Shown in pieces: positions 22,331 through 42,757 of a stretch of 43,774 nt of DNA. Position 1 is the stretch's first letter. The number at the start of each line of letters is the position of its first letter. The notes below the pieces were generated by a model, which was not told where the DNA came from, searched no databases, and saw only the letters and a list, made by a program, of their open reading frames with translations. Where the stretch lies: assembly GCA_030653175.1 (NCBI GenBank), contig JAURZV010000014.1, positions 1-43,774 of the forward strand, in the 5' to 3' direction. The stretch comes from Methylobacter sp. GTDB lineage: Bacteria; Pseudomonadota; Gammaproteobacteria; Methylococcales; Methylomonadaceae. Position numbers and translations under genes: made by a program.

Positions 22331-23815
22331 TTATTTTTTAATATAAAGATCGGTAATCGAGCCGGTGATCATTTCGGCGGCGAAGGCGAAGGTCTCGGAT
22401 AACATTGGATGTGGGTGGACAGTCAAACCGATATCTTCGGCATCGGCGCCCATTTCCAGAGCCAGTACCGCTTCGGCAATTAATTCACCGGCATTGGGAC
22501 CGACCATGCCTGCGCCGAGAATTCTGCCGGTTTCCTTTTCACAGAGTATTTTTGTCAAGCCTTCCTTGCGTCCCAGACTTAATGAGCGCCCACTGGCCGC
22601 CCAAGGGAAAACCGCTTTGTCATAGTCTATACCCTGCTGTTTAGCCTGATTCTCAGTCAAACCCATCCAGGTTACTTCCGGATCGGTATAGGCAACAGCT
22701 GGAATGGTTAAGGCATCGAAGCCCGCTTTTAAACCGGACGCAACTTCGGCGGCAACTTTGCCTTCGTGAGAAGCCTTGTGAGCCAGCATGGGGTTTCCGG
22801 CTATATCGCCAATGGCAAAGATATGCGGAACGTTGGTTCGCTGCTGCTTATCGACAGCAATAAAACCGAGTTCATCGACATTGACTCCCGCCAGCTCAGC
22901 ACCGATCAACTTACCGTTAGGTTTGCGTCCTACGGCTACCAAGACCGCATCGAATATGGCCGAATCCGGCGCGCTTTTACCTTTATCGCCAGGGATGGTG
23001 TGTATGCCGTCAGCCGGCTGGGAGCCGGCACGGTCGAAGGAAACTTTCAGGCCGTCTTCGTGCTTTTCAATTGAGGCAACCCGCGTTTCCAGCCAGATGT
23101 TTTTATATTGCTTTTTAATACGCCGGTACAAAGGAGTAACCAAGTCGTTATCGCAACCCGGAATGATCTGATCCATCAGTTCGACCACGCTGATTTCCGA
23201 CCCAAACGCATGGTAAACCGTGGCCATTTCCAAACCTATAATGCCGCCACCGACTATCAACAGTTTTTTGGGGATTTCTGTTAATTCCAGCGCATCGGTC
23301 GAATCCCATAAACGCGGATCATCATTTGGGAAAACCGGGATTTTAGTAGGATGCGATCCGGCAGCAATAATCGCCTGATCAAAATTGACGTTTTGTATGC
23401 CTGTTTCGGTTTTCACCTCGACCATGTGGTCCGTAGTAAATCGTCCCGTACCTTGGACCAAGGTTATTTTGCGCTGCTTTACCAAACGGGCAAGCCCATC
23501 AACCAGCGTATTGGTAACACTTTCTTTCCAAGCCCGAATTTTATCTATATCAAGAGTCGGTTTACCGTAATTGAGGCCGTGTTGTTCGAACTCATCGACT
23601 TCGTGAATAATCTGTGCGACATGCAGCAGAGCCTTGGACGGAATACAGCCGACATTAAGACACACTCCGCCAAGGCCCGGATAACGCTCGATCAATACCA
23701 CTTGCTTGCCTAAATCGGCAGCGCGGAATGCCGCCGTATAACCGCCGGGGCCGCCGCCCAATACCAGAACCTCTGCATGTATCACAGACTCGTTAATCGC
23801 TGGATTAGCATCCAT
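22331..23815 (-). CDS. lpdA: Dihydrolipoyl dehydrogenase (E3) with a repeat-derived insert
   Basis: The E3 flavoprotein reoxidises dihydrolipoamide on AceF with NAD+. After a short N-terminal extension come the FAD-binding GGGPGGYTAAF (near 20) and the redox disulfide GGVCLNVGC (Cys52 and Cys57). The NAD-binding GGGIIGLEMA and the C-terminal catalytic HPHPMLSE (His469, Glu474) complete it. Residues about 261-277 (RAGSQPADGIHTIPGDK) have no counterpart in E. coli Lpd and are encoded by repeat family A (22985-23033). They sit in the loop before FDAVLVAVGRKPNG. It is the third gene of aceE-aceF-lpdA, separated from aceF by 152 bases that hold another inverted repeat. Confidence 0.96.
   Translation of the reverse strand: MDANPAINESVIHAEVLVLGGGPGGYTAAFRAADLGKQVVLIERYPGLGGVCLNVGCIPSKALLHVAQIIHEVDEFEQHGLNYGKPTLDIDKIRAWKESVTNTLVDGLARLVKQRKITLVQGTGRFTTDHMVEVKTETGIQNVNFDQAIIAAGSHPTKIPVFPNDDPRLWDSTDALELTEIPKKLLIVGGGIIGLEMATVYHAFGSEISVVELMDQIIPGCDNDLVTPLYRRIKKQYKNIWLETRVASIEKHEDGLKVSFDRAGSQPADGIHTIPGDKGKSAPDSAIFDAVLVAVGRKPNGKLIGAELAGVNVDELGFIAVDKQQRTNVPHIFAIGDIAGNPMLAHKASHEGKVAAEVASGLKAGFDALTIPAVAYTDPEVTWMGLTENQAKQQGIDYDKAVFPWAASGRSLSLGRKEGLTKILCEKETGRILGAGMVGPNAGELIAEAVLALEMGADAEDIGLTVHPHPMLSETFAFAAEMITGSITDLYIKK
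22985..23033 (+). repeat. Repeat family A copy inserted in frame in lpdA
   Basis: The unit reads ATCGCCAGGGATGGTGTGTA then TGCCGTCAGCCGGCTGGGAG. It is about 90% identical by eye to the SRAP copy at 18644-18692. The lpdA gene reads it in a different frame from aceE and SRAP, giving AGSQPADGIHTIPG instead of an APVPDSLAAYTPS-type peptide. Confidence 0.85.
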
Positions 23816-25267: not shown

Positions 25268-28048
25268 TTAAATTAGCCAGGGAGCTGTTACATCGGGGTT
25301 TATGCCGTATTTGGCAATAGCCACATCCACTTTGGCGGCATCGAACTGCCCCAGGTCTGCCAGGCTCTTTAGCGCCGCAATGGTGACATGGTAGCGGTCT
25401 ACCTCAAAAAACCGGCGCAGGTTTTCGCGGGTATCGGAACGGCCGAAACCATCGGTGCCCAATACTGTATAAGGCGCGGAAATTAAGCTGCGAATCTGTT
25501 CGGCAAAAGCGCGGGTGTAATCGCTGGCGGCAATCACCGGGCCTTGCGCATCGGCAAGACAATGCGCGACATGGGATTGTTTGGCTGTTTCGGTTGGATG
25601 CAGACGATTCCAGCGTTCACAGGACTGACCGTTTCTGGCCAGTTCGGTAAAACTGGTGCAGCTCCATAAATCGGCTTCCACGCCCCAGTCATTGCGCAGT
25701 AATTCAGCAGCCGCTTCGACTTCACGGAAAATCGTTCCCGAACCCAATAACTGTACGCGAGGTCCTTTCTTTATCTCCATGGATGGAGTGTATGCCGCAA
25801 GACTGTCGGGAACAGGCGCGGCGATCTCCATGGATGGAGTGTATGCCGCAGGACTGTCGGGAACAGGCGCGGCGTTAGCGCCTTTTTTGAAGCTGTACAT
25901 GCCTTTGAGTATATCCAGCTCCACACCTTTAGGCATCGCGGGATGAGCATAATTTTCGTTCATCACGGTGATGTAATAAAAAACATCTTCCTGTTCGACA
26001 TACATGCGTCGCAAACCGTCTTGAATGATCACCGCCAGTTCATACGCATAGGTCGGATCGTAGGACACGCAGTTGGGTACGGTTGCCGCCATCAAGTGAC
26101 TGTGTCCGTCTTCATGTTGCAGGCCTTCGCCATTCAGCGTGGTTCTGCCCGCCGTGCCGCCCATTAAAAAGCCGCGTGTGCGTTGGTCGGCGGCCGCCCA
26201 TATTAAATCGCCAACCCGCTGAAAGCCGAACATCGAATAATAAATAAAAAACGGGATCATCGGCACGTTATGGGTTGAATACGAGGTACCCGCCGCAATC
26301 CAGTCGCACAAACCGCCCGCTTCATTGATACCTTCCTGCAATACCTGTCCGTGTTTGTCTTCCTTGTAAAACATCAGTTGATCGGCATCTTGCGGGGTGT
26401 ACAACTGACCGACCTGCGACCAGATGCCCAGTTGCCGGAACATGCCTTCCATACCGAAAGTTCTCGATTCGTCGGGAACAATCGGCACGATACGTTTACC
26501 GATGTTTTCATCTTTGGTCAGAATGTTAAGCAGGCGCACGAAAGCCATGGTAGTGGAAGTTTCCCGGCCTTCGCCGCTGGCTTCCAGCAACGGCTTGAAA
26601 TCACTCAATACCGGCACATCCAGCGCATAAGATTTTGCCCTTCTGGCGGGCAAATGGCCGCCCAGTTCGCTACGACGCTTCTGCATGTAAGCCAGTTCTT
26701 TTGAACCTTCGGCAAAACTGAGATAAGGCAGGTCATGCAGCTCTTCATCAGTAACCGGCAACGCATAACGACTGCGAAAGTTACTTAACGAACTGGGACT
26801 CATTTTTTTCTGTTGATGAGAGATATTCTGGGCTTCTCCTGAATCGCCCATGCCATAACCTTTAATGGTCTTAGCCAGAATGACGGTGGGTTGGCCTTTA
26901 TGGTTTACCGCTGCATGGAAAGCGGCAAAAACTTTAACCGGATCATGTCCGCCGCGATTAAGTTCATAGATGTCACGATCCGACCAGTCGGAAACCATGG
27001 CTTTTAATTCCGGGGTATTAAAGAAATGTTCGCGCACATAGGCGCCGTTTTTAGCTTTAAAAGTTTGATAATCGCCATCGACACAGGACATCATACGTGC
27101 CGCCAGCAGCCCGTCTTTATCGCGAGCCAGCAACGCATCCCAACGCTGCCCCCAAACCAGCTTGATCACATTCCAACCGGCGCCGCGAAATTCACTTTCC
27201 AGTTCCTGAATGATTTTGCCATTGCCGCGCACCGGTCCATCGAGACGTTGCAGATTGCAGTTGATAACAAAAATAAGATTATCCAGCTTTTCCCGTCCGG
27301 CCATACCGATGGCGCCCAAAGATTCGGGCTCATCAGTTTCACCATCGCCAAGAAAGCTCCAGACCTTGCGGTTTGAAGTATCGGCAAAACCGCGATCCTG
27401 CAGATAGCGCATAAAACGAGCCTGATAAATAGCCATAATCGGCCCAAGCCCCATGGAAACCGTCGGGAACTGCCAGAAATCCGGCATCAGCCAGGGATGA
27501 GGATAAGACGACAAGCCGTTGCCGTTCACTTCCTGACGAAAGTTATCCATCTGTTCCAGCGTCAATCGTCCCAGCAAAAACGCGCGGGCATAATCACCCG
27601 GCGTTAAATGACCTTGAGTAAAAATCAGATCGCCGTCATGTTGATCTGAAGGCGCATGCCAGAAGTGGTTATAACCCACGTCATATAAAGTAGCCGCCGA
27701 AGCAAAACTGGCAATGTGCCCGCCGACGTTGGTGTGCTTATTCGCCCTTAACACCATCATCATCGCATTCCAGCGTACATAAGCGCGAATATTGTGCTCT
27801 ATATCGATGTCACCGGGAAACTGCGCCTGTTGTGCAACAGGAATGGTATTGATATAGGCGGTATTGGCGCTGAAGGGAATGTCGAATCCTGCATGCCGGG
27901 TGACCTCAACCAACCGCTCAATCAGGAAGTGTACACGCTCGCTGCCGTCGTGTTCCAACACGGCTTGCAGCGCTTCAATCCACTCCCTGGTTTCTGCTGG
28001 ATCGACGTCATTCTGTCCGGTGATTTTTGAGATTAAACTATTGGTCAT
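25268..28048 (-). CDS. aceE: Pyruvate dehydrogenase E1 (homodimeric type) with a tandem repeat-derived insert
   Basis: This 926-residue ThDP-dependent E1 decarboxylates pyruvate and acetylates the AceF lipoyl group. The ThDP-binding motif GDGETDEPES...NCNLQRLDGPVRGN is near residues 230-275. The homodimeric-type features LMGGTAGRTTLNGEGLQHEDGHS and LGTDGFGRSD are intact. Residues about 725-758 hold two copies of a 17-residue unit (AAPVPDSxAAYTPSMEI) with no counterpart in E. coli AceE, encoded by tandem 51-base repeats at 25773-25874. It is first in aceE-aceF-lpdA. No pdhR lies upstream. Confidence 0.97.
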   Translation of the reverse strand: MTNSLISKITGQNDVDPAETREWIEALQAVLEHDGSERVHFLIERLVEVTRHAGFDIPFSANTAYINTIPVAQQAQFPGDIDIEHNIRAYVRWNAMMMVLRANKHTNVGGHIASFASAATLYDVGYNHFWHAPSDQHDGDLIFTQGHLTPGDYARAFLLGRLTLEQMDNFRQEVNGNGLSSYPHPWLMPDFWQFPTVSMGLGPIMAIYQARFMRYLQDRGFADTSNRKVWSFLGDGETDEPESLGAIGMAGREKLDNLIFVINCNLQRLDGPVRGNGKIIQELESEFRGAGWNVIKLVWGQRWDALLARDKDGLLAARMMSCVDGDYQTFKAKNGAYVREHFFNTPELKAMVSDWSDRDIYELNRGGHDPVKVFAAFHAAVNHKGQPTVILAKTIKGYGMGDSGEAQNISHQQKKMSPSSLSNFRSRYALPVTDEELHDLPYLSFAEGSKELAYMQKRRSELGGHLPARRAKSYALDVPVLSDFKPLLEASGEGRETSTTMAFVRLLNILTKDENIGKRIVPIVPDESRTFGMEGMFRQLGIWSQVGQLYTPQDADQLMFYKEDKHGQVLQEGINEAGGLCDWIAAGTSYSTHNVPMIPFFIYYSMFGFQRVGDLIWAAADQRTRGFLMGGTAGRTTLNGEGLQHEDGHSHLMAATVPNCVSYDPTYAYELAVIIQDGLRRMYVEQEDVFYYITVMNENYAHPAMPKGVELDILKGMYSFKKGANAAPVPDSPAAYTPSMEIAAPVPDSLAAYTPSMEIKKGPRVQLLGSGTIFREVEAAAELLRNDWGVEADLWSCTSFTELARNGQSCERWNRLHPTETAKQSHVAHCLADAQGPVIAASDYTRAFAEQIRSLISAPYTVLGTDGFGRSDTRENLRRFFEVDRYHVTIAALKSLADLGQFDAAKVDVAIAKYGINPDVTAPWLI
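25773..25874 (+). repeat. Tandem pair of 51-bp family A repeats inside aceE
   Basis: Units 25773-25823 and 25824-25874 differ at a single base. Each holds the palindrome CTCCATGGATGGAG, then GTGTATGCCGC and GGGAACAGGCGCGG. Being 51 bases (17 codons), each keeps the aceE frame. They align with the SRAP and lpdA copies. Confidence 0.9.
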
Positions 28049-30305: not shown

Positions 30306-31715
30306 TCATTCGACAACGCCATGATCAATCCAGCGCCTCTGAAATTCATCTGCAGGCAGCGGAGGCGAGAGATAATATCCTTGAATCTCATCGCAGCCGT
30401 AAGACTGTAACAGCGCCAACTGGGATTCGGTTTCTACGCCTTCGGCGACTACCTTCATATTCAAAACTTGCCCCAAGGATATGATAGTCTTGATAAATGC
30501 CGCCTCGTTCGAGGCGGGGTCATCGATATAAGCCTGAACAAACGATTTGTCTATTTTAAGCGTCTGAATAGGCAATTTTTGCAAATAGGATAAAGACGAA
30601 TAGCCGGTGCCGAAGTCGTCCATGGCGATGTGAATACCGCGCTCTCGGATTTGCTGCAATCGTTCGGTCGCTTTTTCGATGTCGAGCATGACCAAGCCTT
30701 CGGTCACTTCCAATTCAATCCATTCGGGATTGGTACCGGTTTCGGCCAGAATGCAGTCGAGAACAGCAATAAAATCATCGGCCAGAAGTTGCAGCGGCGA
30801 GAGATTGATAGCGAGTCGGAAACCTGTCAGCTGGTTGGCCCATACCTTGGCTTGCAAACAGGCTGTCTTCAGTATCCATTGCCCGAGCGGAATGATTAAA
30901 GCTGTTTCCTCGGCGATAGCGATGAAGCGGTCCGGCGGTATAATGCCGAAGCCGGGACGTCTCCAGCGGATCAGCGCTTCGGCACCGGTTATTCGGTTTA
31001 AGGCGCTATCGAATTTGGGCTGGTAATAAAGCTGGAACTCTTCCTGTTCTATGGCCAATCGCAATGCGTTTTCCAGTAATAGCCTCTGATGTGCCGCCTC
31101 GTTCATGCCCGCTTCATAGTACTGAAACAGGCCTCGGCCTTTCGCTTTGGCCGCATACATGGCAGTATCCGCATGCTTGGTCAGAGTGTAGAAATCATTG
31201 CCGTCATCGGGAAAGATGGCGATGCCGATACTGACGCCGACAAAAACCGTGTAGTCTTTAATTTGCACCGGTTTTGTCATAACACCGATCAGATTTCTGG
31301 CAAGTTCGGTGGCGTCGGTGATGCCGATTAAACCGGGCAGGATGATAGTAAACTCGTCTCCGCCCATACGGGCAACGGTGTCCGTTTTTCGTAAGCAGCT
31401 TTGAATACGCGTTGCGATGATTTGCAATAAACAGTCGCCGGCCCAATGGCCGAGCGTATCGTTGACGCTCTTGAAATGATCCAGATCAAGAAAAAACAAT
31501 GCGAGACGGGTGTTATTACGTTGTGCCAAACAAATTTCGTGCTCAAATCGATCCTTGAACAGAGACCGGTTGGGAAGACTGGTGAGTACATCGTAGTACG
31601 CCAGCTGTTTGAGTTCCTGTTCCGTTTGTTTCTGGTGGCTGATGTCCGTGGAGATCGCCACATAATGAGTTAACCGGCCCCGTTTGTCAGTGACGGCGTT
31701 GATGCTGAGCAGCAT
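30306..31715 (-). CDS. GGDEF-EAL part of a frameshifted Rieske-PAS-PAS-GGDEF-EAL protein
   Basis: The C-terminal part makes and/or degrades cyclic di-GMP. GGDEF is intact (residues 118-122 of this frame), with an inhibitory-site RKTD (109-112) exactly five residues before it. The EAL domain has EALIRW (246), ELEVTEG, DDFGTGYSS (366), KIDKSFV and AEGVETE, so its metal-binding and catalytic residues appear complete. The frame stays open upstream of the ATG 31715, and the peptide IWDRRKNGEFCPMLLS joins it logically to the preceding PAS domain. The real protein therefore starts at 32920, with a frameshift at the C5 run 31756-31760. ATG 31715 is probably not a natural start. Confidence 0.85.
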   Translation of the reverse strand: MLLSINAVTDKRGRLTHYVAISTDISHQKQTEQELKQLAYYDVLTSLPNRSLFKDRFEHEICLAQRNNTRLALFFLDLDHFKSVNDTLGHWAGDCLLQIIATRIQSCLRKTDTVARMGGDEFTIILPGLIGITDATELARNLIGVMTKPVQIKDYTVFVGVSIGIAIFPDDGNDFYTLTKHADTAMYAAKAKGRGLFQYYEAGMNEAAHQRLLLENALRLAIEQEEFQLYYQPKFDSALNRITGAEALIRWRRPGFGIIPPDRFIAIAEETALIIPLGQWILKTACLQAKVWANQLTGFRLAINLSPLQLLADDFIAVLDCILAETGTNPEWIELEVTEGLVMLDIEKATERLQQIRERGIHIAMDDFGTGYSSLSYLQKLPIQTLKIDKSFVQAYIDDPASNEAAFIKTIISLGQVLNMKVVAEGVETESQLALLQSYGCDEIQGYYLSPPLPADEFQRRWIDHGVVE

Positions 31716-32920
31716 CGGGCAGAATTCGCCGTTTTTTCGGCGATCCCAGATTTCTCCCCCTCATTCAATAGCGATTGCCACAGGTGTTTGTAAAACGGCT
31801 TATTGTGCAGTTTCGACTTCAATATCCGGGGGTTTCGGCCCAGTACTTCGGAACGCTCATAGCCGGTGATTGCGCAGAATGCCGCATTAACCTCCATGAT
31901 GGTGCCCTGCGGATCGGTGATAAAAATTGCCTCGCTACTATTTTCGAAGACTTTGGCGCTCAGTTGCAGCTGAGTTTCCCGGTTTTTTAATTCGGTGATA
32001 TTCAAGGCTGTCACAACTGCGCCTTCCAGTTTTCCCTGCTCCGAATGCAACAAACTGCTCTTTAACCAATAGATGGATTTTATGTTGCACCTGTTTTTGC
32101 CCAAGAGCTCATGTTCACCGGTATAGTATCCGTTAAGCCGAACGGTTTCCAACAGCACGGATCGGATCGGCCAGGGCAAACCCGGCAATTGCCCTGTGAG
32201 GTGCTGTTGTTCGAGAGGAGTCAGCAATTCGTCGATACAGGTTCCCAGCAATTCAGCTTCAGTAAGCCCGAGTTCGCGCTCCACCGCCGTATTCAGCCGG
32301 AGAATCCGGCCTTCCGTATCAATGACGATCAGGAGATCGTCAATAGTATCCATGACGCGGTCAACAAAGCGACTGAGGGCATGCTGCTGACCCACCTTTT
32401 CTTTGAGTTTTATCTTTTGCTGCTCCGATTCGCTGAGCGTGGCATCCATGCTTTGGGTGATGACGCGAATTTGCTTTTCCTGTTTCAGATTGGCCAGCCG
32501 CAGTTTATCGATTTCCTCTCGCAGTTGAAGCACTGTTTGAGAATCCTCGCTGCCGGAGATATTTTCGATCCGATTTTCAGCTGTTCCAAACAGGCTGATT
32601 TCGTTCAGGGACACCAAAAATTGACCGTCGTGTTCTTGGACACGAAATTTTGAAATTTTCAAATCGATGCGTCGGCTGTGCGCCGGACAAACAAGGATAT
32701 TTTCATTGAGCAGCGGACAATGCGTCAGATCGCAACCTTCATGAGGGCATAGGGCCGGGACGGCCTGAAATTCGCCCTGAATGTTGAAAATCAGAATATC
32801 GATAGAGCGATGCTCGCCGGGTAATCGTAAGCGGCCTTTCCAGCGCGGTGGATCAGCCAAGTCGAGGAGCATTACCGCTTCGACGATGACATCACGAAAA
32901 TTTGGACTTTGACGGCTCAT
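31670..32920 (-). CDS. Rieske-PAS-PAS part of a frameshifted cyclic-di-GMP signalling protein
   Basis: The N-terminal part has a Rieske-type [2Fe-2S] domain with C58-P-H60 and C78-P-A-H81, the full ligand set. A coiled coil (about 128-165) follows, then PAS1 (about 168-295, DDLLIVIDTEGRILRLN) and PAS2 (from about 300, SSEAIFITDPQGTIMEVN...ITGYERSEVLGRNPR). The natural product ends near NEGE; the last 30 residues are out-of-frame translation past a G5 run on this strand. Its ATG overlaps the TGA of the hydrogenase endopeptidase gene (ATGA), tying it to the hydrogenase operon. An iron-sulfur domain directly fused to PAS-GGDEF-EAL suggests redox input from the hydrogenase. Confidence 0.85.
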   Translation of the reverse strand: MSRQSPNFRDVIVEAVMLLDLADPPRWKGRLRLPGEHRSIDILIFNIQGEFQAVPALCPHEGCDLTHCPLLNENILVCPAHSRRIDLKISKFRVQEHDGQFLVSLNEISLFGTAENRIENISGSEDSQTVLQLREEIDKLRLANLKQEKQIRVITQSMDATLSESEQQKIKLKEKVGQQHALSRFVDRVMDTIDDLLIVIDTEGRILRLNTAVERELGLTEAELLGTCIDELLTPLEQQHLTGQLPGLPWPIRSVLLETVRLNGYYTGEHELLGKNRCNIKSIYWLKSSLLHSEQGKLEGAVVTALNITELKNRETQLQLSAKVFENSSEAIFITDPQGTIMEVNAAFCAITGYERSEVLGRNPRILKSKLHNKPFYKHLWQSLLNEGEKSGIAEKTANSARCCSASTPSLTNGAG

Positions 32921-33369
32921 TCCGACAAAAGATCTCGTATCAATTGGACGGTTTTGGGTACGGCCTGTTCGGTTTTATCGGACAGACCGGGGGAAAAGGG
33001 GGTGACGGCGGCTATTTCGACACCCACGATCAGAATATCCGGCAGTGGTTCCCGGATGACTTTAAGTGCCTCCAGCAAATACGGAAGTCCCAGACCATGA
33101 CCGGTGAGCTGCTGCGGTCTGTCGGCCAAATCTTCCGGCCTCAACACGCAAATCTCACCGACATTCCCGAAGTTGGCCATGGCATCGACCAGAATCGCCT
33201 GACTGCAATTCTCAAGAAACCGGAGCGCATTGAGTCCGGCGATGCCCGCATTGAACACTTCGACATCTTTCGGCCACGTCAACCGGCGAAGCTCTGCGTA
33301 GATGCGGCTACCGAAGCCGTCATCCCCGTGCAGTTCGTTGCCAAAACAAACGATATTGCGTGTACCCAT
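32917..33369 (-). CDS. Hydrogenase maturation endopeptidase (HyaD/HoxM family)
   Basis: A 150-residue protease that trims the C-terminal peptide of the large subunit after the Ni-Fe centre is built. It begins NIVCFGNELHGDDGFG, with the Glu and Asp nickel-sensing residues. It has VDAMANFG near 63 and a His in the TGHGLGLPYLL segment near 90, matching the family. The start lies 3 bases after the large-subunit stop, and the end overlaps the Rieske-PAS gene. The large subunit has a cleavable tail, so this protease has a substrate in the same operon. Confidence 0.92.
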   Translation of the reverse strand: MGTRNIVCFGNELHGDDGFGSRIYAELRRLTWPKDVEVFNAGIAGLNALRFLENCSQAILVDAMANFGNVGEICVLRPEDLADRPQQLTGHGLGLPYLLEALKVIREPLPDILIVGVEIAAVTPFSPGLSDKTEQAVPKTVQLIRDLLSE

Positions 33370-33372
33370 AGC

Positions 33373-34911
33373 TTAGGGCCATACGGTGATGCGTTTACCC
33401 GTGTCGAGTAGATGCACGGTGCAGACCAGACAGGGATCATGGGAGCGGATAATATGGCCGATTTCCACCGGGTCGTCCGGATCGTCAACGGTCAAGCCAA
33501 TCAAACTGCTCTCCCAATGCCCGTGCCGGCCTTCGCTGTCTTTGGGCGATGCATTCCATGCGGTTGGCGTAACGACTTGATAGCGGCTAATAACGCCGTC
33601 GGTGATTTGCACCCAATGACCCAGTGCGCCGCGCGCCGCCGTTACCAGCCCAAAACCTTCCCCGTCGGGGATTTCTTTCTCGTCGGGGGAGATCATGTGC
33701 GGCTGGTTAGGCTGTGCGGCCAGTTCGTGCAGCGTTTCCCGCATTTTATGCAACAGCCGGGCAGTGCGATGTAAGCGGGCGAACTGGCGCAGCCAGGCAT
33801 TGCCCCCCTCCGCCTGATATAACGAGCGGATCAGCGGCTCGCCGTCGATTAAAGCATCTGCCAGGGGACCGGTTTGCACGACCTTGTTCTGATAGCGGGG
33901 CGCTTTGCACCAGGTATAGCGGTCGGAATGGGGTTGATAATCAGGGATGGTTTGCCCCTGAAACGGATGGCGTCCGCCCGAGTATGGCTGAAACCAGGAA
34001 TAGCGCACATGCTCGGTAATTTCGGCTTGCTCGAAAGGCTCGATGTCGCCGGTATCGCCATTGAGGAAACCGGCTCTGAACAAGTGCTTGCGATGCGGAG
34101 GAAAAGTCCCGGCATCGTCCGGGTCGTCATAAGCGCCATAGCTGATCATATGCGGAGTGCCGAACCCTACGTGTTGCAGGCCTATGTCACGGCTCATCAG
34201 CGTAAACAGTCCGATGGCGCTGTCTGCATGAGCATCCTTCGCCGTTAGCCAAGTGAAGAATTCGTCGGCGGATTGTACTGCCAGCCAGGCATCCAGATCT
34301 GTTCCGATGATGGTCTGTTCAAACCATCGGGTTAATTTGTTGAGAATGGACAGGCTGTCGATAATGTGGCGACTACTCGCAGGGGTAGTCACACCGCCCG
34401 GCAGCATATAAGACGAGTGCGGCCACTGACCGCCAAACAGCGCGATAATTTCGACGATATGACGCGAATATTCGAGAGCGCCACGGTGAACCAAGCCCTT
34501 AAACGGCAGAAAAGCTGCCCGCGCTTTTTCATAAAACGGCCGACGGATATATTTGGAGTGGCAAAAATCGGCAGTGAAGAACATAAACGATTGCCGCAGA
34601 TCGCTTTGCACCGTCTCGGCCATCAAACACAGATTGCGGATGCGAATGGCCGTGGGCGGCACGGGAATGCGGCCGATATGTTCCAGTGCAAGCACCGCGG
34701 CATTTAATTGCGCAGTGCCGCAGATGCCGCAGATACGGGGCGTAATCACCAGAGAGTCCTTGGGCTTGCGGCTTATGAGGATTTGTTCGAACCCTCTATA
34801 GAGGGAACCGATACAACGGGCATCGACGACTTTGTTGTCTTCCAGTTCAAGTTGGAAATCGAGATCGCCCTCGACCCGGTTAAGGTCGATTTGAATGATT
34901 CGTCTGGCCAT
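33373..34911 (-). CDS. [NiFe] hydrogenase large subunit
   Basis: 512 residues. The four Cys ligands of the Ni-Fe centre are in RICGIC (Cys61, Cys64) and DPCLVCTVH (Cys494, Cys497). The proton-transfer glutamate is in NRVEGD near residue 14. A C-terminal tail of 12 residues follows His500, which the adjacent endopeptidase should remove. ATG 34911 was chosen because it lies just after the small-subunit stop; the longer open frame overlaps that gene and is not hydrogenase-like. The segment TAWNASPKDSEGRHGHWE is family-typical. With a Tat-less small subunit this indicates a group 2-like cytoplasmic enzyme. The cleavable tail separates it from classical regulatory HoxC/HupV proteins, which lack one. 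Confidence 0.93.
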   Translation of the reverse strand: MARRIIQIDLNRVEGDLDFQLELEDNKVVDARCIGSLYRGFEQILISRKPKDSLVITPRICGICGTAQLNAAVLALEHIGRIPVPPTAIRIRNLCLMAETVQSDLRQSFMFFTADFCHSKYIRRPFYEKARAAFLPFKGLVHRGALEYSRHIVEIIALFGGQWPHSSYMLPGGVTTPASSRHIIDSLSILNKLTRWFEQTIIGTDLDAWLAVQSADEFFTWLTAKDAHADSAIGLFTLMSRDIGLQHVGFGTPHMISYGAYDDPDDAGTFPPHRKHLFRAGFLNGDTGDIEPFEQAEITEHVRYSWFQPYSGGRHPFQGQTIPDYQPHSDRYTWCKAPRYQNKVVQTGPLADALIDGEPLIRSLYQAEGGNAWLRQFARLHRTARLLHKMRETLHELAAQPNQPHMISPDEKEIPDGEGFGLVTAARGALGHWVQITDGVISRYQVVTPTAWNASPKDSEGRHGHWESSLIGLTVDDPDDPVEIGHIIRSHDPCLVCTVHLLDTGKRITVWP

Positions 34912-34913
34912 GG

Positions 34914-35855
34914 TTAAGTATCCATCGTCTTGTTCAGCACCCGGTCTGGAGCCGCATCGTGAGCCAGACTTTTGTAAGCCATGTAATTGGCCCGTTCCAC
35001 GCCCAGAGGCAGATGTACCGGAATGGTGCCGATTTTTTCGGTGAGGAACAGATCCTGAGTCAGCGGAAATTCGGGGGAAGTACAGCCGAAACACGGCACT
35101 CCTGCCCGTGTCTTGCTACTGCGACCATTCCAGAGCTCGGTATTGCAAATGGCCATCGTGATCGGTCCCTGGCAACCCAGATTAAAGAACATGCAGGCCT
35201 TATCGCCGAACTCGGTGTCTTCTATGTCGTACTCATGATATTCGGTGCGGGTGCAGCCCTGATGCACAGTGCTATTGAAAAAAGCCTTGGGGCGATTAAG
35301 ATGATCGAGTTCTAGTGGCAATCCGGAAGCCAGCATGGCCAACGTTTTGGTCATCGCATTGGGGTGAGCGGGGCAGCCCGAGATATTGATGACCGGCAGG
35401 CCTTTGCGAGATCGCCATTCGGGTGGCAATAACCCGCCGGGAGATTGTTTGTCGAACTGCAAGCCGAGACAGTCGGTCGGGTTGGGCGGCGCGGCATGGA
35501 CACCGCCGAATGAGGCGCAAGTACCCAGAGCGACCACGTATCCAGCCTTTTCGACCAGTTCACTGACCAGGCTCATTTTGGAGCGTCCACGATAGGGATC
35601 GTACATGCCTGAGCCATTGGGGCCGGTGATGATGCTGCCTTCAATGCATAAAATGTCGAGGGCTTGTTGATCAGATTTGATCTCCTCGATCAAAGTGTCC
35701 AGTCGGCTCGTGGGCTCTATGGACAGGGATGGTTGCCAGAGCATCTCGATGCTGTATTCATCCACGAGTTCTTCCAGCGATGGGCTGTCCGCGCATAAAA
35801 TCGACATGGTGTCGCCGCCGCAGGAACCGGTTTGTAGCCAAAGTAGTGTCGTCAT
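34914..35855 (-). CDS. [NiFe] hydrogenase small subunit, group 2-like, with CxxD at the proximal cluster
   Basis: 313 residues carrying the electron-transfer Fe-S clusters. It begins TTLLWLQTGSCGGDTMSIL with no Tat signal, so it is cytoplasmic, as in HoxB/HupU and cyanobacterial HupS. The proximal-cluster motif, usually CxxC, is Cys12-Gly-Gly-Asp15. The other expected ligands are present: GTCASFGG, SGCPAHPN, HQGCTR, FNLGCQGP and the CNTELW...VPCFGCTSPEFP medial region. No C-terminal membrane anchor is visible. A TGAGG leader precedes the ATG. It is first in the operon small-large-endopeptidase-Rieske/PAS/GGDEF/EAL. Confidence 0.93.
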   Translation of the reverse strand: MTTLLWLQTGSCGGDTMSILCADSPSLEELVDEYSIEMLWQPSLSIEPTSRLDTLIEEIKSDQQALDILCIEGSIITGPNGSGMYDPYRGRSKMSLVSELVEKAGYVVALGTCASFGGVHAAPPNPTDCLGLQFDKQSPGGLLPPEWRSRKGLPVINISGCPAHPNAMTKTLAMLASGLPLELDHLNRPKAFFNSTVHQGCTRTEYHEYDIEDTEFGDKACMFFNLGCQGPITMAICNTELWNGRSSKTRAGVPCFGCTSPEFPLTQDLFLTEKIGTIPVHLPLGVERANYMAYKSLAHDAAPDRVLNKTMDT

Positions 35856-37068: not shown

Positions 37069-37150
37069 CAGCAACAACCAGCAACAAACAATAATAAATA
37101 ATTCAACAACTTAACTGTTTTGTCTTGTTGTCCATTATTGCCATTTATTG
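37069..37150. repeat. Short direct repeats next to the attachment site
   Basis: CAGCAACAA occurs at 37069-37077 and 37079-37087. CCATTATTG (37132-37140) is followed by CCATTTATTG (37141-37150). Closely spaced direct repeats between att and int are what arm-type integrase or excisionase sites look like; binding is inferred. Confidence 0.45.
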
Positions 37151-37249
37151 CCCTTTTTTATATTCAATTGCTCCAAAAGTGCGCCAAGAGTTATAATAAA
37201 AACCCAGAGACAAAGCGGCCTTCAAGGTTTTTTTATTAAAGGGGTTTGT

Positions 37250-37438
37250 ATGGCACACATTAAAAAACGCTTAGCTAAAGATGGAACACCCGGCTACACA
37301 GTTCAAATTAGGTTAAAAGGTTATCCACATCAAACTGCAACATTTAGGCGGTTATTAGATGCCAAAAAATGGGCGTTAGTTACTGAGGAGAAAATCAGGG
37401 CGGCGCGTGTTAAGGCATTAATGGAAGCTGAGTTTTAA
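37250..37438 (+). CDS. Free-standing integrase arm-binding-like (AP2-type) domain protein
   Basis: 62 residues. It closely parallels the first 60 residues of the neighbouring integrase (AKDGTPGYTVQIRLKGYPHQ here, AKDGTKRYRAEVRLKGYPAQ there; then ATFRRLLDAKKW and ATFKRLTDAKKW). It then stops, with no catalytic part. The ATG at 37250 has AAAGGGG about five bases upstream, so it is probably expressed as a small protein and not simply a broken integrase. It could compete with integrase at arm sites or act in excision. The leader (37209-37228) shares ACAAAGCGGCCTT with the region before the integrase (37455-37474), so this looks like a local duplication. Confidence 0.7.
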   Translation: MAHIKKRLAKDGTPGYTVQIRLKGYPHQTATFRRLLDAKKWALVTEEKIRAARVKALMEAEF

Positions 37439-37578
37439 TTTACTACCACTACAAACAAAGCGGCCTTGCAGGTGTACCACCACCAAACAAGGCCTTACCG
37501 ATTCACTTAACAAGCAGGGTTAAGCAATGGCTGAATACATCATATCAAAAAGCCGGTTGCTATCCCATAGGGGCAATC

Positions 37579-38646
37579 ATGGCAACTATCACAGAACGCA
37601 CAGCTAAAGACGGAACTAAACGCTATAGGGCGGAAGTTCGTTTAAAAGGCTATCCAGCACAAACGGCAACCTTTAAGCGGCTAACTGATGCGAAGAAGTG
37701 GGTGCAAGACACCGAGAGCGCAATTAGAGAGGGGCGGCACTTCAAAACCGCCGAAGCTAAAAAACACACCTTTGCAGATTTAGCCGATAGGTACATCAAG
37801 GACATTTTACCAACAAAGCCAAAACAGGCGCGGCAACAAAAGCAGCAGCTCGAATGGTGGAAGGACAAGATGGGGGCTTATCTTCTTTCGGATGTAACGG
37901 CGGCAATGATTGGACAGTACCGGGACGAATTAGCAAGCGGCGCAACTACACGCGGTGAACATAGGAACCCGGCCACAGTAGTGCGATATTTGGCGGCTTT
38001 GTCCCATGCTTTCAGTGTTGCGGTGAATGAGTGGGAATGGCTGGAAGATTCACCCATGCGTAAGGTTAAAAAGCCGACTGAATCAAGGGGGCGCGTTCGC
38101 TATCTTGATGACGACGACCGAGCAAAATTATTGCAAGCCTGCAAAGAATCACCAAACCCTTTGCTTTATCCGTGCGTTATTGTCGCATTGTCCAGCGGCA
38201 TGAGACAAAGCGAACTGATGGGGCTAAATTGGAGGGATGTAAACCTTAAGGATGGTTTTTTAATTCTGCACGAAACCAAAAACGGCGAACGGCGGCGCGT
38301 CCCTTTGTCTGGCCTAGCATTATCACTATTACAAGAACATGCCAAAGTCCGGCGGCTTGATACCACGCTGTTATTCCCAAGCGACAGAAACCCACAAAAG
38401 CCGATTGATTTACGTAAGGCCTTTGCAAGTGCGCTTAGGGTTGCTGAGATAACGGATTTTACATGGCATGACCTTAGACATTGCACAGCGTCTTATTTAG
38501 CCATGAATGGCGCTTCACTGGCCGAAATAGCCGAGATTCTAGGCCATAAAACCTTAAGCATGGTTAAGCGTTACGCCCACTTATCAGACGGCCATGTGTC
38601 CAGCGTGATTGAAAGCATGAATGCTAAAATATTCGGGGGCGTGTGA
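37579..38646 (+). CDS. Tyrosine-type site-specific integrase
   Basis: 355 residues. An AP2-like arm-binding N-terminal domain (1-60) is followed by a core-binding SAM-like domain (about 65-155, HTFADLADRYIKDI) and the catalytic domain. Catalytic residues are all visible: Arg in GMRQSEL, Lys in ETKNGERRRVPL, His-x-x-Arg in WHDLRHCTAS, His in EILGHKT and the nucleophile Tyr in VKRYAHL. It should act on the tRNA-Asn 3' end 500 bases away. The next gene overlaps its stop. Confidence 0.95.
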   Translation: MATITERTAKDGTKRYRAEVRLKGYPAQTATFKRLTDAKKWVQDTESAIREGRHFKTAEAKKHTFADLADRYIKDILPTKPKQARQQKQQLEWWKDKMGAYLLSDVTAAMIGQYRDELASGATTRGEHRNPATVVRYLAALSHAFSVAVNEWEWLEDSPMRKVKKPTESRGRVRYLDDDDRAKLLQACKESPNPLLYPCVIVALSSGMRQSELMGLNWRDVNLKDGFLILHETKNGERRRVPLSGLALSLLQEHAKVRRLDTTLLFPSDRNPQKPIDLRKAFASALRVAEITDFTWHDLRHCTASYLAMNGASLAEIAEILGHKTLSMVKRYAHLSDGHVSSVIESMNAKIFGGV

Positions 38647-39431
38647 TGAAGAACGCAAAAGACTATATCGAAGTAACCGCGCCGAACGTTCAAAGAATTA
38701 CAAGCCTTGCCTATTGGTTGACACCCGAAGGACTTGATGACCCGATAACAGCCGAAATGTTGCAACGGGCAATCAAAATGGGAACGGATGAAGAATTTAA
38801 CGAAGCGTTTGACGGAGCAACAAGAGCCGAAGCCGCTAAGTACCTTGAACAGTGGGAGCTTTGCTATATGTCGTATTGGGGCGCGCCTGAACTGGTAAGA
38901 GCAATAACCTTGTCTTCTACCCGTAATGAACCGTTGGCATTGAGAGCCGTTATTTTGGCGCAAAGCATGGGCGAATTGCCGGAAGTGTTCACACCCACAA
39001 CAGGTATTAAATGGGCTATGGCAAGAGGTTATCTGATTGGGAGCATTTGTAAAATGGTTGGAGTACAGCCCGGAAATTATGGACACCCAAGCAACCCGCT
39101 ATCTATTGATGACACCGACCACCTTAACCCATCAATTCAAATCAAAGCCGATGGGGATGCTGGCGCGGTTGATGATGCAGGAACAAAGCCGAATGAGCGA
39201 GAACTAACCGCTTGGTTAAGAGAAGCTTGGATTAAAGAGGGGAAGCCCGGAGGAACGGCTTTCTTTAATGGGTTAAAAAAATATGCAGGGGGATATGGAA
39301 GCCCAATTACTCAATGCTATACAGCGGGAAAAAACGCCGGTTTTAAATGGATAACCAGCGCAGGAACAACCGGAGAAATGCCAAAAAAGACATTGTTAAA
39401 CAAGGTAGGCATATTCAAGCGCACACCATAA
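38646..39431 (+). CDS. Hypothetical protein of the integrative element
   Basis: About 261 residues, starting inside the integrase stop (TGATG), so probably coupled to int. I do not recognise the N-terminal two thirds, which look helical and acidic with no signal peptide or membrane segment. The C-terminal 75 residues (RELTAWLREAWIKEGKPGG..FFNGLKKYAGGYGSPI) look like a small winged or DNA-binding domain with Lys-rich edges, but this is only an impression. A GTG at 38643 is a possible alternative start. Confidence 0.7.
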   Translation: MKNAKDYIEVTAPNVQRITSLAYWLTPEGLDDPITAEMLQRAIKMGTDEEFNEAFDGATRAEAAKYLEQWELCYMSYWGAPELVRAITLSSTRNEPLALRAVILAQSMGELPEVFTPTTGIKWAMARGYLIGSICKMVGVQPGNYGHPSNPLSIDDTDHLNPSIQIKADGDAGAVDDAGTKPNERELTAWLREAWIKEGKPGGTAFFNGLKKYAGGYGSPITQCYTAGKNAGFKWITSAGTTGEMPKKTLLNKVGIFKRTP

Positions 39432-39579
39432 CAAAACAGTGTCAATAGCAAAAAACAGGCAAAATTCCCGATAACATTCCCGATTATGTTCCTAGTTTTC
39501 CCGGTTGAAGAATCGGGAAAAAACAGGGCTTTAAATACTCATACCGCAACGATTCGCGGTGTAACCGGAGTATTTAAAA
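39432..39579 (+). promoter_or_regulatory. Regulatory region with CCCGAT repeats and a hairpin covering the ribosome-binding site
   Basis: ATTCCCGAT occurs twice (about 39464-39486) and is mirrored by GAATCGGGAA (about 39510-39519), suggesting an operator or processed hairpin. At 39533-39575 a second structure pairs AAATACTC with GAGTATTT and ACCGC with GCGGT. The GGAG Shine-Dalgarno of the next gene (39567-39570) lies inside the right arm, so folding would hide it. Confidence 0.55.
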
Positions 39580-39792
39580 ATGACAGTTCAAACAGCATGG
39601 GCTTACTTAACAGTCCAACAATTCACAGCCAAGCATACCGCCTTTAATACGGGCGGCCTACGCGCCCTTATCTTCAATGAACACACCAACGGCCTAGCCA
39701 AGTCCGGGGCTATTGTTCGCATTGGTCGTAAAGTCTTAATTCGGGATGATTTATTTTTCGCCTGGGTCGAATCACAAAATAAGGCTGCCTAA
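39580..39792 (+). CDS. AlpA/excisionase-like regulatory protein
   Basis: 70 residues. LTVQQFTAKHTAFNTGGLRALIFNE, then SGAIVRIGRKVLIRDDLFFAWVE, is a small winged-helix pattern often found as the first gene of P4-like and related integrative elements. It likely controls excision or the downstream operon. It is first in a chain of tightly spaced or overlapping genes reaching 42757, and its leader contains the hairpin described just upstream. Confidence 0.75.
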   Translation: MTVQTAWAYLTVQQFTAKHTAFNTGGLRALIFNEHTNGLAKSGAIVRIGRKVLIRDDLFFAWVESQNKAA

Positions 39793-39794
39793 TC

Positions 39795-40094
39795 ATGGGC
39801 GGCTTATCAAATAAATCAGCTTGGACGGCGCACGAAGTCAAACAGCGGCTTGAAGCAGGCGAGGAACTTTCAACGCTAAAGCAAACAATTGACGCGGGAG
39901 GCTGGCGGTTATCGGCGGCTATTCACGTATTAAAGCGAGATTTTAAACTTCCGATTATAAGCTACCGGCGCAAAGGGTTTGGGCGGGTGGCGTTTTATAG
40001 ATTGGTTCGATGTATGCATCAAACGGCACAAGAGGATATTTTCGAGCAGAGCAGCCACCCCCAAGCGACGAACTTAGGGGGCGGTAATGCTTAA
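39795..40094 (+). CDS. Small hypothetical protein with a possible helix-turn-helix
   Basis: 99 residues, two bases after the preceding stop. SAWTAHEVKQRLEAGEELSTLKQTI, then RLSAAIHVLKRDFKLPI, could form a helix-turn-helix pair, and the Arg/Lys-rich YRRKGFGRVAFYRL could be a wing. The C-terminus is polar and overlaps the next start by 8 bases. Function is unknown; replication control or repression fits the location. Confidence 0.6.
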   Translation: MGGLSNKSAWTAHEVKQRLEAGEELSTLKQTIDAGGWRLSAAIHVLKRDFKLPIISYRRKGFGRVAFYRLVRCMHQTAQEDIFEQSSHPQATNLGGGNA

Positions 40095-40386
40095 CAAAAA
40101 ACTGAATGTTGATTATATCAAACGCTCACTTTCACCGTTTGACTTTTACCGGCATGAACTACCCGGCGCAACGCTCAAAAAGCACGATTGGAATGATGGT
40201 GGCTTATGTTGCTTTCATGCAGACAATAAACCCGGTTCATTCCGTGTAAATCTGACGACAGGCGCGTTTAAATGCTTTTCATGTGGGATTGCTGGTGGTG
40301 ATGTTATCGCCTTCACTATGGCCGTGTATGGGCTTGAATTTGTCGAAGCACTGGCAAAACTGGCTGATGACTGGGGTTTAATATGA
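40087..40386 (+). CDS. CHC2-type zinc-finger primase-like protein
   Basis: 99 residues. The zinc-binding pattern C41-x2-H44-x18-C63-x2-C66, in CCFHADNKPGSFRVN...FKCFSCGIAGGDVIAF, is that of DnaG-type primase N-terminal domains that read template DNA. The protein stops after this domain. Catalytic functions are on the separate Toprim-DUF3987 protein two genes downstream. Both ends overlap neighbours (ATGA with the next), so a split primase made in fixed ratio is plausible. Confidence 0.85.
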   Translation: MLNKKLNVDYIKRSLSPFDFYRHELPGATLKKHDWNDGGLCCFHADNKPGSFRVNLTTGAFKCFSCGIAGGDVIAFTMAVYGLEFVEALAKLADDWGLI

Positions 40387-40577
40387 GTATCAGATTAAGA
40401 ATATTGGCGGAATTGTTATCAGATGATTTGAGTGAAAAAGGAGTTATTGCACAGGATGACGAGCTTTTAAGCTTAACCCTAACAATAACGAACCATGCAG
40501 GAACTAAGCAAACGGTAATTATTGCTGAATCGTTTACAGGTAACGGCTGGGAAATTGACGGGGAGTTGCTTATATGA
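40383..40577 (+). CDS. Small hypothetical protein between primase-like genes
   Basis: 64 acidic residues, MSIRLRILAELLSDDLSEKG then a predicted beta strand-rich part. It overlaps both neighbours by ATGA, so it is translated with them. No family is recognised; it could bridge the zinc-finger and Toprim-helicase proteins. Confidence 0.6.
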   Translation: MSIRLRILAELLSDDLSEKGVIAQDDELLSLTLTITNHAGTKQTVIIAESFTGNGWEIDGELLI

Positions 40578-42757
40578 ACATCCCAAGCACCCACAACGGC
40601 AAACCATTGATTCATGCTTGGACTTATTGCGCTACGGATGGCGCGCCCTTCGGGGCTGTCGCAAGGTATCAGGACGGGGGCGGTAAAAAGGATATTGTCC
40701 CTTACTTCAAACGTAATGGCGCAACCTGGGCGGCTGGTATCGAGTTAAACCCACGGCCTTTATTTGGGCTTGATAAGTTGGCGGCACATCCAAAGAATAA
40801 AGCTGTTTTTATCGTTGAGGGCGAGAAAGCGGCGGCAGCCTTGCAGAGTGTAGGCATTGCAGCCGTTAGCAGTCTTGGAGGCTCACAGGCGGCAAAACAG
40901 GCTGACTGGACACCTTTAAACGGTTATAAGCTGGTGTACCTGTTACCGGATGCAGACGAGCCGGGCGAACATTATATGCAGGACGTTTACCGGGCGTTAA
41001 TGGCCTTAGATTCACCGCCACAATGTAAGGTGGTTGTATTGTCCGGCTTGCCTGTTAAGGGTGATGTAGTGGACTGGGTGCAATCCTTAATAAACGACTG
41101 GGACGGCTACAGTCCTATTGATGAAAGTTTGCATGAAGCATTAAGGGAGGAACTACGGGCAGAGCTGAAAAACGCCGAGCCAATACCGAGTGATTGGAAT
41201 TTAGCGGTTTTAGCTGGTTCATGCTCTGGCGTTTTTGACTGGGAAAAACCCGGAGAAATTGAAACTAAAACGCCACCCGTTCAAGCACTACAATCTGAAC
41301 TGATACCAGAACCGTTCCGGCATTGGCTGGCTGATGTATCGCACAGGATGCAGACACCCCCCGATTTTGCGGCAATATCGAGTATTGTTATTGTTGGCTC
41401 AATCATTGGCGCGGGGTGCAGTATCAGGCCTAAAAAGCTGGATGATTGGGAAATCATACCGAATGTATGGGGCGCGGCAATCGGGAGGCCTTCGGTTGTA
41501 CTGAAATCCCCAAGCATGAAAGAACCTATGAGCTTACTTGAACGCCTGCAAGCTGAATACGGCGAACAGTACGAGCAGGACAAAGCCGGGGCTGAGTTCG
41601 ACAGTCTGGCAAACAAAGCCATGATTGATGATGTAAAAGGGCAGCTATCCAAAGCGGCGAAGGGTAAGGGCAAAGATGGCGTAGTAAAAGGTGATGACTT
41701 GCAGAAGTTAAAAGCTGATTACATGGAGTTATCAGAGAACGCCGAACCCGAAGCCACCCGGCGACTATTCAAAACTAATGAAACCAGCGTACAGAGTATG
41801 ACGGTTTTACAGAACCAGAACCCGCGCGGCCTGTTGACATTCAGGGATGAATTAACCGCCTTATTGGTTAAATGGGATAGGGAGGACGGAGCAGATGAAC
41901 GCGCCTATTTTCTGGAAGGCTGGAATGGTAACGGTTCTTATACTGATTTTAAGATAGGGCGCGGCCTTACCGAAGCACCTAATATTTGTATCAGCCTGTT
42001 AGGTGGCATACAGCCGGACAAGTTAAGGCGGTATCTGTATCAAGCACAGAATGGCAGTAATGACGGCCTGATGCAACGCTTACAGCTTGCCGTGTGGCCT
42101 GATGAACCGGAACGCTGGCAGTTAATAGACACCGTACCAAATAAGGCAGAGAAGCGGCGAGCTTTCGATATTATGAAGGCATTGGCTGAACTGGATTTTA
42201 TCGGATCCGGTGCGGTTCAATCTGAGTATGACGACCGACCTTACTTTCGTTTTAATGATGCGGGGCAGTCAATTTTTAATGAATGGCTGACGGAGTTACA
42301 AACCGTCAAGATTCAACAAGAAACTAACCCCTTGATGGTTGAGCACTTCGGGAAGTTCCGTTCATTGATGCCTTCATTGGCCTTGATATTCCACTGTATC
42401 GACATTGCAGACGGTAAAGCGCAGGGCAATGTATCAGCACAGGCGGCAATGCTGGCGGTTGAGTGGTGTGTTTATCTGGAATCACATGCAAGGCGAATTT
42501 ATGCAATGGCTGAGAGTCCAGAACATGAAGCGGCGGTAAGGCTGGCGGATAAGATAAAAGCCGGGGGGGTGTCCAGTCCATTCACCACCAAAGCCATTTA
42601 TGATAAAGGCTGGCATGGGTTAAAGGATAAGGCAGAAGTAGAAGCGGCCTGTAATATTCTGATAGATGAAAGCTGGCTGATGATGCAGAGAAAACCGAAA
42701 CCAGCCACCGGACGACCACCTTTACCAGAATATTACATTAACCCCTTTTTTCTCTAA
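40574..42757 (+). CDS. Toprim plus DUF3987 replication-like protein
   Basis: 727 residues. The N-terminal Toprim-like domain (about 70-170) shows FIVEGEKAAAAL and LLPDADEPGEHY, the Glu and Asp-x-Asp that bind Mg in primases. From about 250 the DUF3987 helicase-like region carries a modified P-loop (GRPSVVLKSPSMKEP, near 305). DUF3987 proteins are the usual replication protein of many integrative elements. With the CHC2 finger protein upstream it would make a split primase-helicase. A pair of inverted repeats follows the gene. Confidence 0.85.
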   Translation: MNIPSTHNGKPLIHAWTYCATDGAPFGAVARYQDGGGKKDIVPYFKRNGATWAAGIELNPRPLFGLDKLAAHPKNKAVFIVEGEKAAAALQSVGIAAVSSLGGSQAAKQADWTPLNGYKLVYLLPDADEPGEHYMQDVYRALMALDSPPQCKVVVLSGLPVKGDVVDWVQSLINDWDGYSPIDESLHEALREELRAELKNAEPIPSDWNLAVLAGSCSGVFDWEKPGEIETKTPPVQALQSELIPEPFRHWLADVSHRMQTPPDFAAISSIVIVGSIIGAGCSIRPKKLDDWEIIPNVWGAAIGRPSVVLKSPSMKEPMSLLERLQAEYGEQYEQDKAGAEFDSLANKAMIDDVKGQLSKAAKGKGKDGVVKGDDLQKLKADYMELSENAEPEATRRLFKTNETSVQSMTVLQNQNPRGLLTFRDELTALLVKWDREDGADERAYFLEGWNGNGSYTDFKIGRGLTEAPNICISLLGGIQPDKLRRYLYQAQNGSNDGLMQRLQLAVWPDEPERWQLIDTVPNKAEKRRAFDIMKALAELDFIGSGAVQSEYDDRPYFRFNDAGQSIFNEWLTELQTVKIQQETNPLMVEHFGKFRSLMPSLALIFHCIDIADGKAQGNVSAQAAMLAVEWCVYLESHARRIYAMAESPEHEAAVRLADKIKAGGVSSPFTTKAIYDKGWHGLKDKAEVEAACNILIDESWLMMQRKPKPATGRPPLPEYYINPFFL

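What the first reader, a model, noticed from the sequence alone, without database searches (positions are those of the whole stretch)
30306..35855. Hydrogenase operon wired to a Rieske-PAS-PAS-GGDEF-EAL protein: a candidate H2-to-cyclic-di-GMP redox relay
Seen: hydrogenase small subunit (no Tat signal), large subunit, endopeptidase and signalling gene follow each other with 2-3 base gaps or an ATGA overlap. The signalling protein has a complete Rieske ligand set (C58-x-H60, C78-x2-H81), a coiled coil, two PAS domains, GGDEF with an RKTD inhibitory site, and an EAL domain with its key residues. Known: cytoplasmic group 2 hydrogenases include H2 sensors (HoxBC/HupUV) that signal through a PAS histidine kinase, and from memory some group 2 hydrogenases have been proposed to act on c-di-GMP. 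Inferred: electrons from H2 oxidation pass from the small-subunit clusters to the Rieske centre, whose redox state sets c-di-GMP synthesis or breakdown. Direct fusion of a Rieske domain to GGDEF-EAL is an unusual design.
Basis: partly seen in the sequence, partly recalled or inferred. Interest (0 to 1): 0.88.

Follow-up and report, generated by a model that had tools for sequence, protein, structure and literature searches.

The report
Rieske-bearing hydrogenase-linked c-di-GMP sensor, broken copy
In many methane-eating bacteria a hydrogen-handling enzyme is encoded right beside a signalling protein that carries its own iron-sulfur (Rieske) domain, which suggests a hydrogen and redox sensor that sets a common bacterial lifestyle signal; in this particular genome the signalling gene is broken.

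Summary
The operon is real: hupS, hupL, protease, then a signalling gene with Rieske, coiled coil, two PAS, GGDEF and EAL. Relatives are intact. In 17 of 17 relatives the gene directly follows hupS-hupL-protease, with C-x-H-x17-C-x2-H exact in all 17. The Rieske part folded alone matches Rieske proteins.

The H2/c-di-GMP idea is not new: HydDB lists group 2c hydrogenases as 'diguanylate cyclase-linked (putative)' (PMC5037454), and this most likely is that group. New here: a Rieske domain in 19 of 38 readable loci of this hydrogenase type, 11 Rieske-less GGDEF-EAL relatives, 2 with GGDEF alone and 5 with a hybrid histidine kinase; one is cut off. Hydrogenase plus coiled-coil-PAS partner is the constant; output and Rieske vary. 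Most likely a sensory hydrogenase acting through coiled coil/PAS1, with the Rieske centre as redox gate or electron acceptor. Electron transfer is inferred, untested.

The parts
34914..35855 (-). hupS, [NiFe]-hydrogenase small subunit, 313 aa, no Tat signal; proximal-cluster motif C12-x2-D15 (Asp where HoxB-like small subunits L115 and L116 have Cys)
33373..34911 (-). hupL, large subunit, 512 aa; L1 RICGIC, L2 SHDPCLVCTVH followed by a 12-residue C-terminal extension
32917..33369 (-). HycI-type maturation protease, 150 aa
31670..32920 (-). front part of the broken signalling gene: Rieske, coiled coil, PAS1 and a truncated PAS2, 416 aa, out of frame at its end
32609..32893 (-). Rieske domain, residues 10-104; ligands C58, H60, C78, H81
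32345..32542 (-). one long helix (coiled coil), residues 127-192
   Evidence: helix predicted; aligned with Rieske-less partners
32000..32344 (-). PAS1, residues 193-307
31756..31757 (-). point at which the window is ten bases shorter than four relatives, inside PAS2; the frame shifts here
30306..31715 (-). rear part of the broken signalling gene: GGDEF (about 31134-31601) with I-site RKTD, and EAL (about 30360-31070), 469 aa
29692..30033 (-). hypA, nickel maturation factor, same strand, 272 bases downstream; next to the operon in at least 4 of the 17 relatives (in two of them on the other strand)

Best explanation
A group 2c-type cytosolic [NiFe]-hydrogenase that works as an H2 sensor. HupSL is matured by its own protease and docks on the coiled coil/PAS1 stretch of the partner encoded after it. 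Reduction or turnover with H2 changes the coiled coil-PAS state and so the balance of c-di-GMP synthesis (GGDEF) and breakdown (EAL). In the Methylococcales branch the partner carries an N-terminal ferredoxin-type Rieske domain that most likely takes electrons from the HupS clusters, or is set by another cell redox couple, and so gates the signal: an H2-and-redox sensor rather than a pure H2 sensor. Shown: gene order, domains, ligand conservation, predicted Rieske fold, shared coiled coil-PAS front, varying outputs. Inferred: docking, H2 dependence, electron transfer to the Rieske centre, direction of the c-di-GMP change. In this genome the gene is broken, so the pathway probably does not run as one protein here.
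Against: The window's own copy is frame-shifted and its genome has no second match to the Rieske region at E 1e-5. 11 Rieske-less GGDEF-EAL and 5 kinase partners show that the Rieske is not needed for coupling. No residue pattern in HupS or HupL goes with the Rieske beyond control splits (HupS 4 positions against 2 and 9, HupL 3 against 6 and 4). No complex was modelled. PMC12810054 (passages) states that, to its authors' knowledge, there is no evidence for metabolic use of H2 from axenic Methylobacter. Foldseek E-values for the Rieske model are modest (best 4.1e-3, none at 0.001).
Confidence: 0.55

Rival explanations
1. Direct electron relay: H2 electrons reach the Rieske centre and its redox state alone sets the GGDEF-EAL output.
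For: Ferredoxin-type Rieske fold with ligands conserved in 17 of 17; HucE of the related group 2a also bears a Rieske-like motif and is needed for H2 oxidation in M. smegmatis (PMC6883350, passages).
Against: Rieske-less partners in 11 loci and kinase partners in 5 go with the same hydrogenase type and front end, so signalling without the Rieske must be possible.
Confidence: 0.25
2. The Rieske domain senses oxygen, nitric oxide or the cell's redox state independently of the hydrogenase; the two inputs merge on PAS/GGDEF-EAL.
For: The Rieske is a separable N-terminal add-on, joined by the least conserved linker (identity 0.34); methanotrophs live at oxic-anoxic borders (general knowledge).
Against: All 18 strong Rieske hits among 200 relatives are beside hupL, so the domain goes with the hydrogenase.
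Confidence: 0.25
3. An uptake hydrogenase whose electrons leave through the Rieske protein into metabolism; the c-di-GMP domains only tune or place it.
For: C-terminal extension and protease point to a catalytically mature enzyme; the nearest solved structure is the respiratory Huc.
Against: Partners without a Rieske (19 of the 38 readable, one of them cut off downstream) offer no such electron exit; the readable outputs are all signalling domains.
Confidence: 0.12
4. The split gene in this window is an assembly or sequencing error and the strain is intact.
For: Only this one of 18 Rieske loci is split.
Against: Ten bases are missing at one point, which is not a typical homopolymer miscount.
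Confidence: 0.2

Closest known systems
[NiFe]-hydrogenase group 2c, 'diguanylate cyclase-linked (putative)' (HydDB, PMC5037454, passage; Greening et al. 2016 not held, known only as cited)
   Same: Cytosolic HupSL followed by a diguanylate cyclase/phosphodiesterase. PMC4853749 (passages) places Thiomargarita HupSL in group 2c on the strength of Methylobacter tundripaludum as top match, and PMC12810054 (passages) reports group 2c in Methylobacter; the window's HupL is 97% identical to that of the M. tundripaludum SV96 locus
   Different: The passages read name no Rieske domain; sister loci carry a hybrid histidine kinase instead of a cyclase
Regulatory hydrogenase HoxBC/HupUV with HoxJ (group 2b; recalled)
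   Same: Cytosolic hydrogenase beside a PAS signalling protein
   Different: The HoxBC-like large subunits L115 and L116 (my label) end at CTVH and their small subunits have a proximal Cys; here a 12-residue extension, a protease and Asp
Huc, group 2a, with HucE (PMC6883350, passages)
   Same: Best PDB match of both subunits (3.1e-84 and 2.9e-97); a Rieske-motif protein in the operon
   Different: HucE is a separate NifU-like plus Rieske-motif protein needed for H2 oxidation; Huc has Asn where this has Asp; Huc-type rows are a separate branch
Rieske ferredoxins of dioxygenases
   Same: Fold and ligand pattern
   Different: Here fused to coiled coil-PAS-PAS-GGDEF-EAL, and apart from 12 Rieske proteins without this fusion taken from Methylococcales (98/100)

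Membership tests
[NiFe]-hydrogenase group 2c | Placement apart from groups 2a and 2b in a large-subunit tree | tested here: met
   42 rows of this type apart from three Huc-type and two HoxC-like rows (98/90, which warns of long branches). The group labels of the five are mine, by motif; the HydDB classifier itself could not be run
[NiFe]-hydrogenase group 2c | L2 motif SFDxCLVCTVH (consensus quoted in PMC4853749) | tested here: inconclusive
   Window SHDPCLVCTVH, one letter off; the same His as in Thiomargarita, which that paper calls 2c; the kinase/GGDEF sister clade has SFDPCLVC
[NiFe]-hydrogenase group 2c | Gene next to a diguanylate cyclase/phosphodiesterase | tested here: met
   17 of 17 relatives; the window too, though its gene is split
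[NiFe]-hydrogenase group 2c | H2-dependent change of c-di-GMP | not testable with these tools
   Needs the bench; HydDB's wording for the whole group is 'undetermined role'
Regulatory hydrogenase group 2b (HoxBC/HupUV) | Large subunit without C-terminal extension, no protease needed (recalled) | tested here: not met
   12-residue extension and adjacent HycI-type protease; lack of the extension seen in L115 and L116
Group 2a uptake hydrogenase (Huc/cyanobacterial HupSL) | Groups with Huc-type sequences, proximal Asn as in Huc | tested here: not met
   Separate branch, Asp15 instead of Asn; cyanobacterial sequences were not in the tree
Rieske [2Fe-2S] domain | C-x-H ... C-x2-H ligand set and Rieske fold | tested here: met
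Rieske [2Fe-2S] domain | Binds a redox-active cluster | not testable with these tools
   Needs spectroscopy
Bifunctional GGDEF-EAL protein | Catalytic motifs of both domains | tested here: met
   GGDEF 16 of 17 and I-site 16 of 17 (L047 lacks both patterns), EAL 17 of 17; further EAL-domain patterns missing in L043 (EGVE), L048 (KID) and L051 (cut by the contig end); the window's rear ORF has GGDEF, I-site, EAL, DDFGTG and EGVE. Activity not testable

The most novel reading that the evidence does not exclude
A two-input receptor: a sensory [NiFe]-hydrogenase docked on a coiled coil-PAS stem plus a built-in Rieske redox centre that together set c-di-GMP in methanotrophs, with nature having swapped the output (GGDEF-EAL, GGDEF, histidine kinase) and added or removed the Rieske in sister lineages, so that hydrogenase plus coiled coil-PAS is a general H2-input module.
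Probability: 0.4. Interest if true: 0.78.

Novelty: new variant of a known kind. Interest (0 to 1): 0.55.

Why it matters
Group 2c hydrogenases have been listed since 2016 with an undetermined role (PMC5037454). A conserved operon with a Rieske domain in some lineages, none in others, and a kinase in yet others gives natural domain-deletion and domain-swap pairs that make the H2-sensor idea testable in named methanotroph strains (M. tundripaludum, Methylovulum, Methylomonas). If true, attachment or dispersal of methanotrophs could answer H2 at oxic-anoxic borders.

Tried and rejected
Residues in HupS/HupL that go with the Rieske: no excess over control splits. Origin of the Rieske: the HupL tree needs two changes and puts L146 (G570) deepest in the GGDEF-EAL clade, but one Rieske clade is not rejected (p-AU 0.11 for HupL; 0.305 for the partner), so one gain, two gains, or an ancestral Rieske with two losses stay open. 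The Rieske-only tree does not resolve L146. Fold search with residues 1-310 returned PAS or LOV proteins in the rows shown, so the Rieske part was folded and searched alone. Rows dropped: five of the 31 HupL hits were left out of the 40-locus tally because they look Huc-type (L112-L114) or HoxC-like/other (L115, L116); 20 of the 23 hits (E 4.3e-103 to 2.7e-117) were not mapped; the thresholds differ (1e-60, 1e-100, 1e-130). Four named loci (L057, L065, L066, L070) belong to records outside the 17 relatives and are not in the tally; three have hupL beside the gene. L072 and L073 match only PAS or GGDEF-EAL and show no hupL in the fetched stretch. Alignment A1 leaves out L045 (17 rows of 18, undetermined bases). 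The tree (47 rows) leaves out L150; one search uses 40 of these (L115, L116, L105, L106, L109, L050, L162 left out); one search uses 10 of the 17 relatives, L146 and 8 Rieske-less partners. Pfam was run on 8 of the 17 relatives' partners. Phyla other than Pseudomonadota were not searched with HupL. Paper searches for a Rieske/cyclase/hydrogenase report; judged by listings, except PMC6883350, PMC12810054, PMC4853749 and PMC5037454, of which passages were read.
Full report
What is there. On the - strand, hupS (34914-35855), hupL (33373-34911), a HycI-type protease (32917-33369) and a signalling gene (from 32920) follow each other with gaps of 2 and 3 bases and a 4-base overlap. Pfam confirms each. 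The signalling gene encodes a Rieske domain, a long helix, two PAS domains, GGDEF and EAL, but not in one frame: the ORFs are 31670-32920 and 30306-31715. Aligned with four relatives, the window is ten bases shorter within PAS2, which shifts the frame. Its genome has only this one match to the Rieske region at E 1e-5. So the gene in this genome is broken, unless the contig is wrong there; intact copies are common among relatives.

Who else has it. The window lies in a genome of 4.0 Mb of the same genus as the M. tundripaludum SV96 record. Among 200 relatives searched with residues 1-128, 72 (own counted) match at E 1e-5; 18 of them (own counted) match at 2.1e-21 or better, with long frames (765-1027 aa; own 434); the other 54 match at 2.5e-9 or worse, mostly in short frames of about 110 aa. 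In 17 of the 17 relatives the order hupS-hupL-protease-partner is the same, on one strand, adjacent. A scan of genome contigs returned 21 loci; 18 are this family, and 17 of those 18 have hupL just upstream, the 18th starting inside the gene; 14 of the 18 are the same records as among the 17 relatives. They are Methylobacter, Methylovulum, Methylomonas, Methylomicrobium, Methylocaldum and an unnamed Methylococcaceae.

The hydrogenase. Best PDB matches of both subunits are those of Huc, group 2a. In a tree of 47 large subunits the window's type is apart from three Huc-type rows and two HoxC-like rows (these labels are mine, by motif). It has a 12-residue C-terminal extension and a protease; the HoxC-like L115 and L116 end at CTVH. 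At the second ligand place of the proximal cluster it has Asp (Glu in L108), Huc-type rows have Asn, HoxC-like rows Cys. PMC4853749 assigns Thiomargarita HupSL to group 2c with M. tundripaludum as its top match (passages); PMC12810054 reports group 2c in Methylobacter (passages); HydDB calls 2c 'Diguanylate cyclase-linked (putative). Undetermined role. May sense H2 and regulate processes through cyclic di-GMP production' (PMC5037454, passage). The link itself is therefore known as a proposal.

What varies. Searching the large subunit in 200 relatives gave 31 genomes at E 1e-60, in 369 genomes of the class 23 at 1e-100, in 398 of the phylum 7 at 1e-130, in 48 of one class 6 at 1e-130, all among those, in 39 of one family 6 at 1e-130; the own genome is counted. 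Of the window's type (E 1e-150 or better, plus L071) there are 40 loci: 26, 6, 7 and L071. The partner can be read in 38 (G176 and G963 end at contig ends). All 38 have a PAS signalling protein with a front like the window's: Rieske-GGDEF-EAL in 19 (18 Methylococcales, own broken copy included, and G570 of another class, L146), GGDEF-EAL without Rieske in 11, GGDEF alone in 2, hybrid histidine kinase in 5, cut off after PAS in 1 (L071). Pfam was run on 25 of these 38; the rest rest on BLAST matches and motifs. A coiled coil was predicted structurally only for the window; elsewhere it is inferred from alignment. In L108 and L161 the partner starts within a few bases of the protease end, leaving no room for a Rieske domain. 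The fronts of the two partner groups match over PAS and the start of the coil. Kinase and GGDEF-only partners form one HupL clade with L110 (100/99), GGDEF-EAL partners with L071 and L162 another (100/99). Whether the Rieske was gained once or twice, or lost, is open.

Reading. A constant hydrogenase plus coiled coil-PAS front with interchangeable signalling outputs is what an H2 receptor would look like. The Rieske domain is an add-on whose ligands are kept in one large branch and in one distant genome. The simplest account is a redox gate or electron acceptor on the receptor; that it takes electrons from HupS is inference. Results against: broken copy here, Rieske-less relatives, no Rieske-correlated residues in the subunits beyond controls, no complex model, and no reported use of H2 by axenic Methylobacter (PMC12810054). 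In ten paper searches neither the listings nor the passages read showed a Rieske-GGDEF-EAL protein beside a hydrogenase; the library lacks most subscription papers, and Greening et al. 2016 was not held.

Noticed in passing
window 25773-25874, 22985-23035, 18641-18697: A repeat of about 51 bases lies inside coding frames: two tandem copies in a pyruvate dehydrogenase E1-like gene, one in a dihydrolipoamide dehydrogenase-like gene (names recalled) and an inverted one in the gene at 18271-19020, without breaking the frames.
   Followed up: partly
window 37148-43774: What looks like an integrative element begins 1.3 kb upstream of hupS: phage-type integrase, CHC2 zinc-finger protein, DUF3987/Toprim protein, DUF5681; no tRNA found in the window.
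   Followed up: partly
L111, L148, L150, L151, L152: Hydrogenases of the same type followed by a PAS hybrid histidine kinase rather than a cyclase; in L150 a gene that reads like a response regulator follows. The name 'diguanylate cyclase-linked' does not cover these.
   Followed up: yes
HupS residue 15 and equivalents: The second proximal-cluster ligand place is Asp (Glu in L108; no match to the pattern in L147) in loci of this type, Asn in Huc-type, Cys in HoxB-like small subunits; what this does to the cluster is not known here.
   Followed up: partly
L044 2596-6429 and L061 2769-6602: A second large GGDEF-EAL-like gene (1277 aa, 43% to the window's rear ORF) is divergently placed just upstream of hupS in Candidatus Methylobacter oryzae.
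   Followed up: no
L116: In G024 hupS and hupL are about 7 kb apart with other ORFs in between.
   Followed up: no
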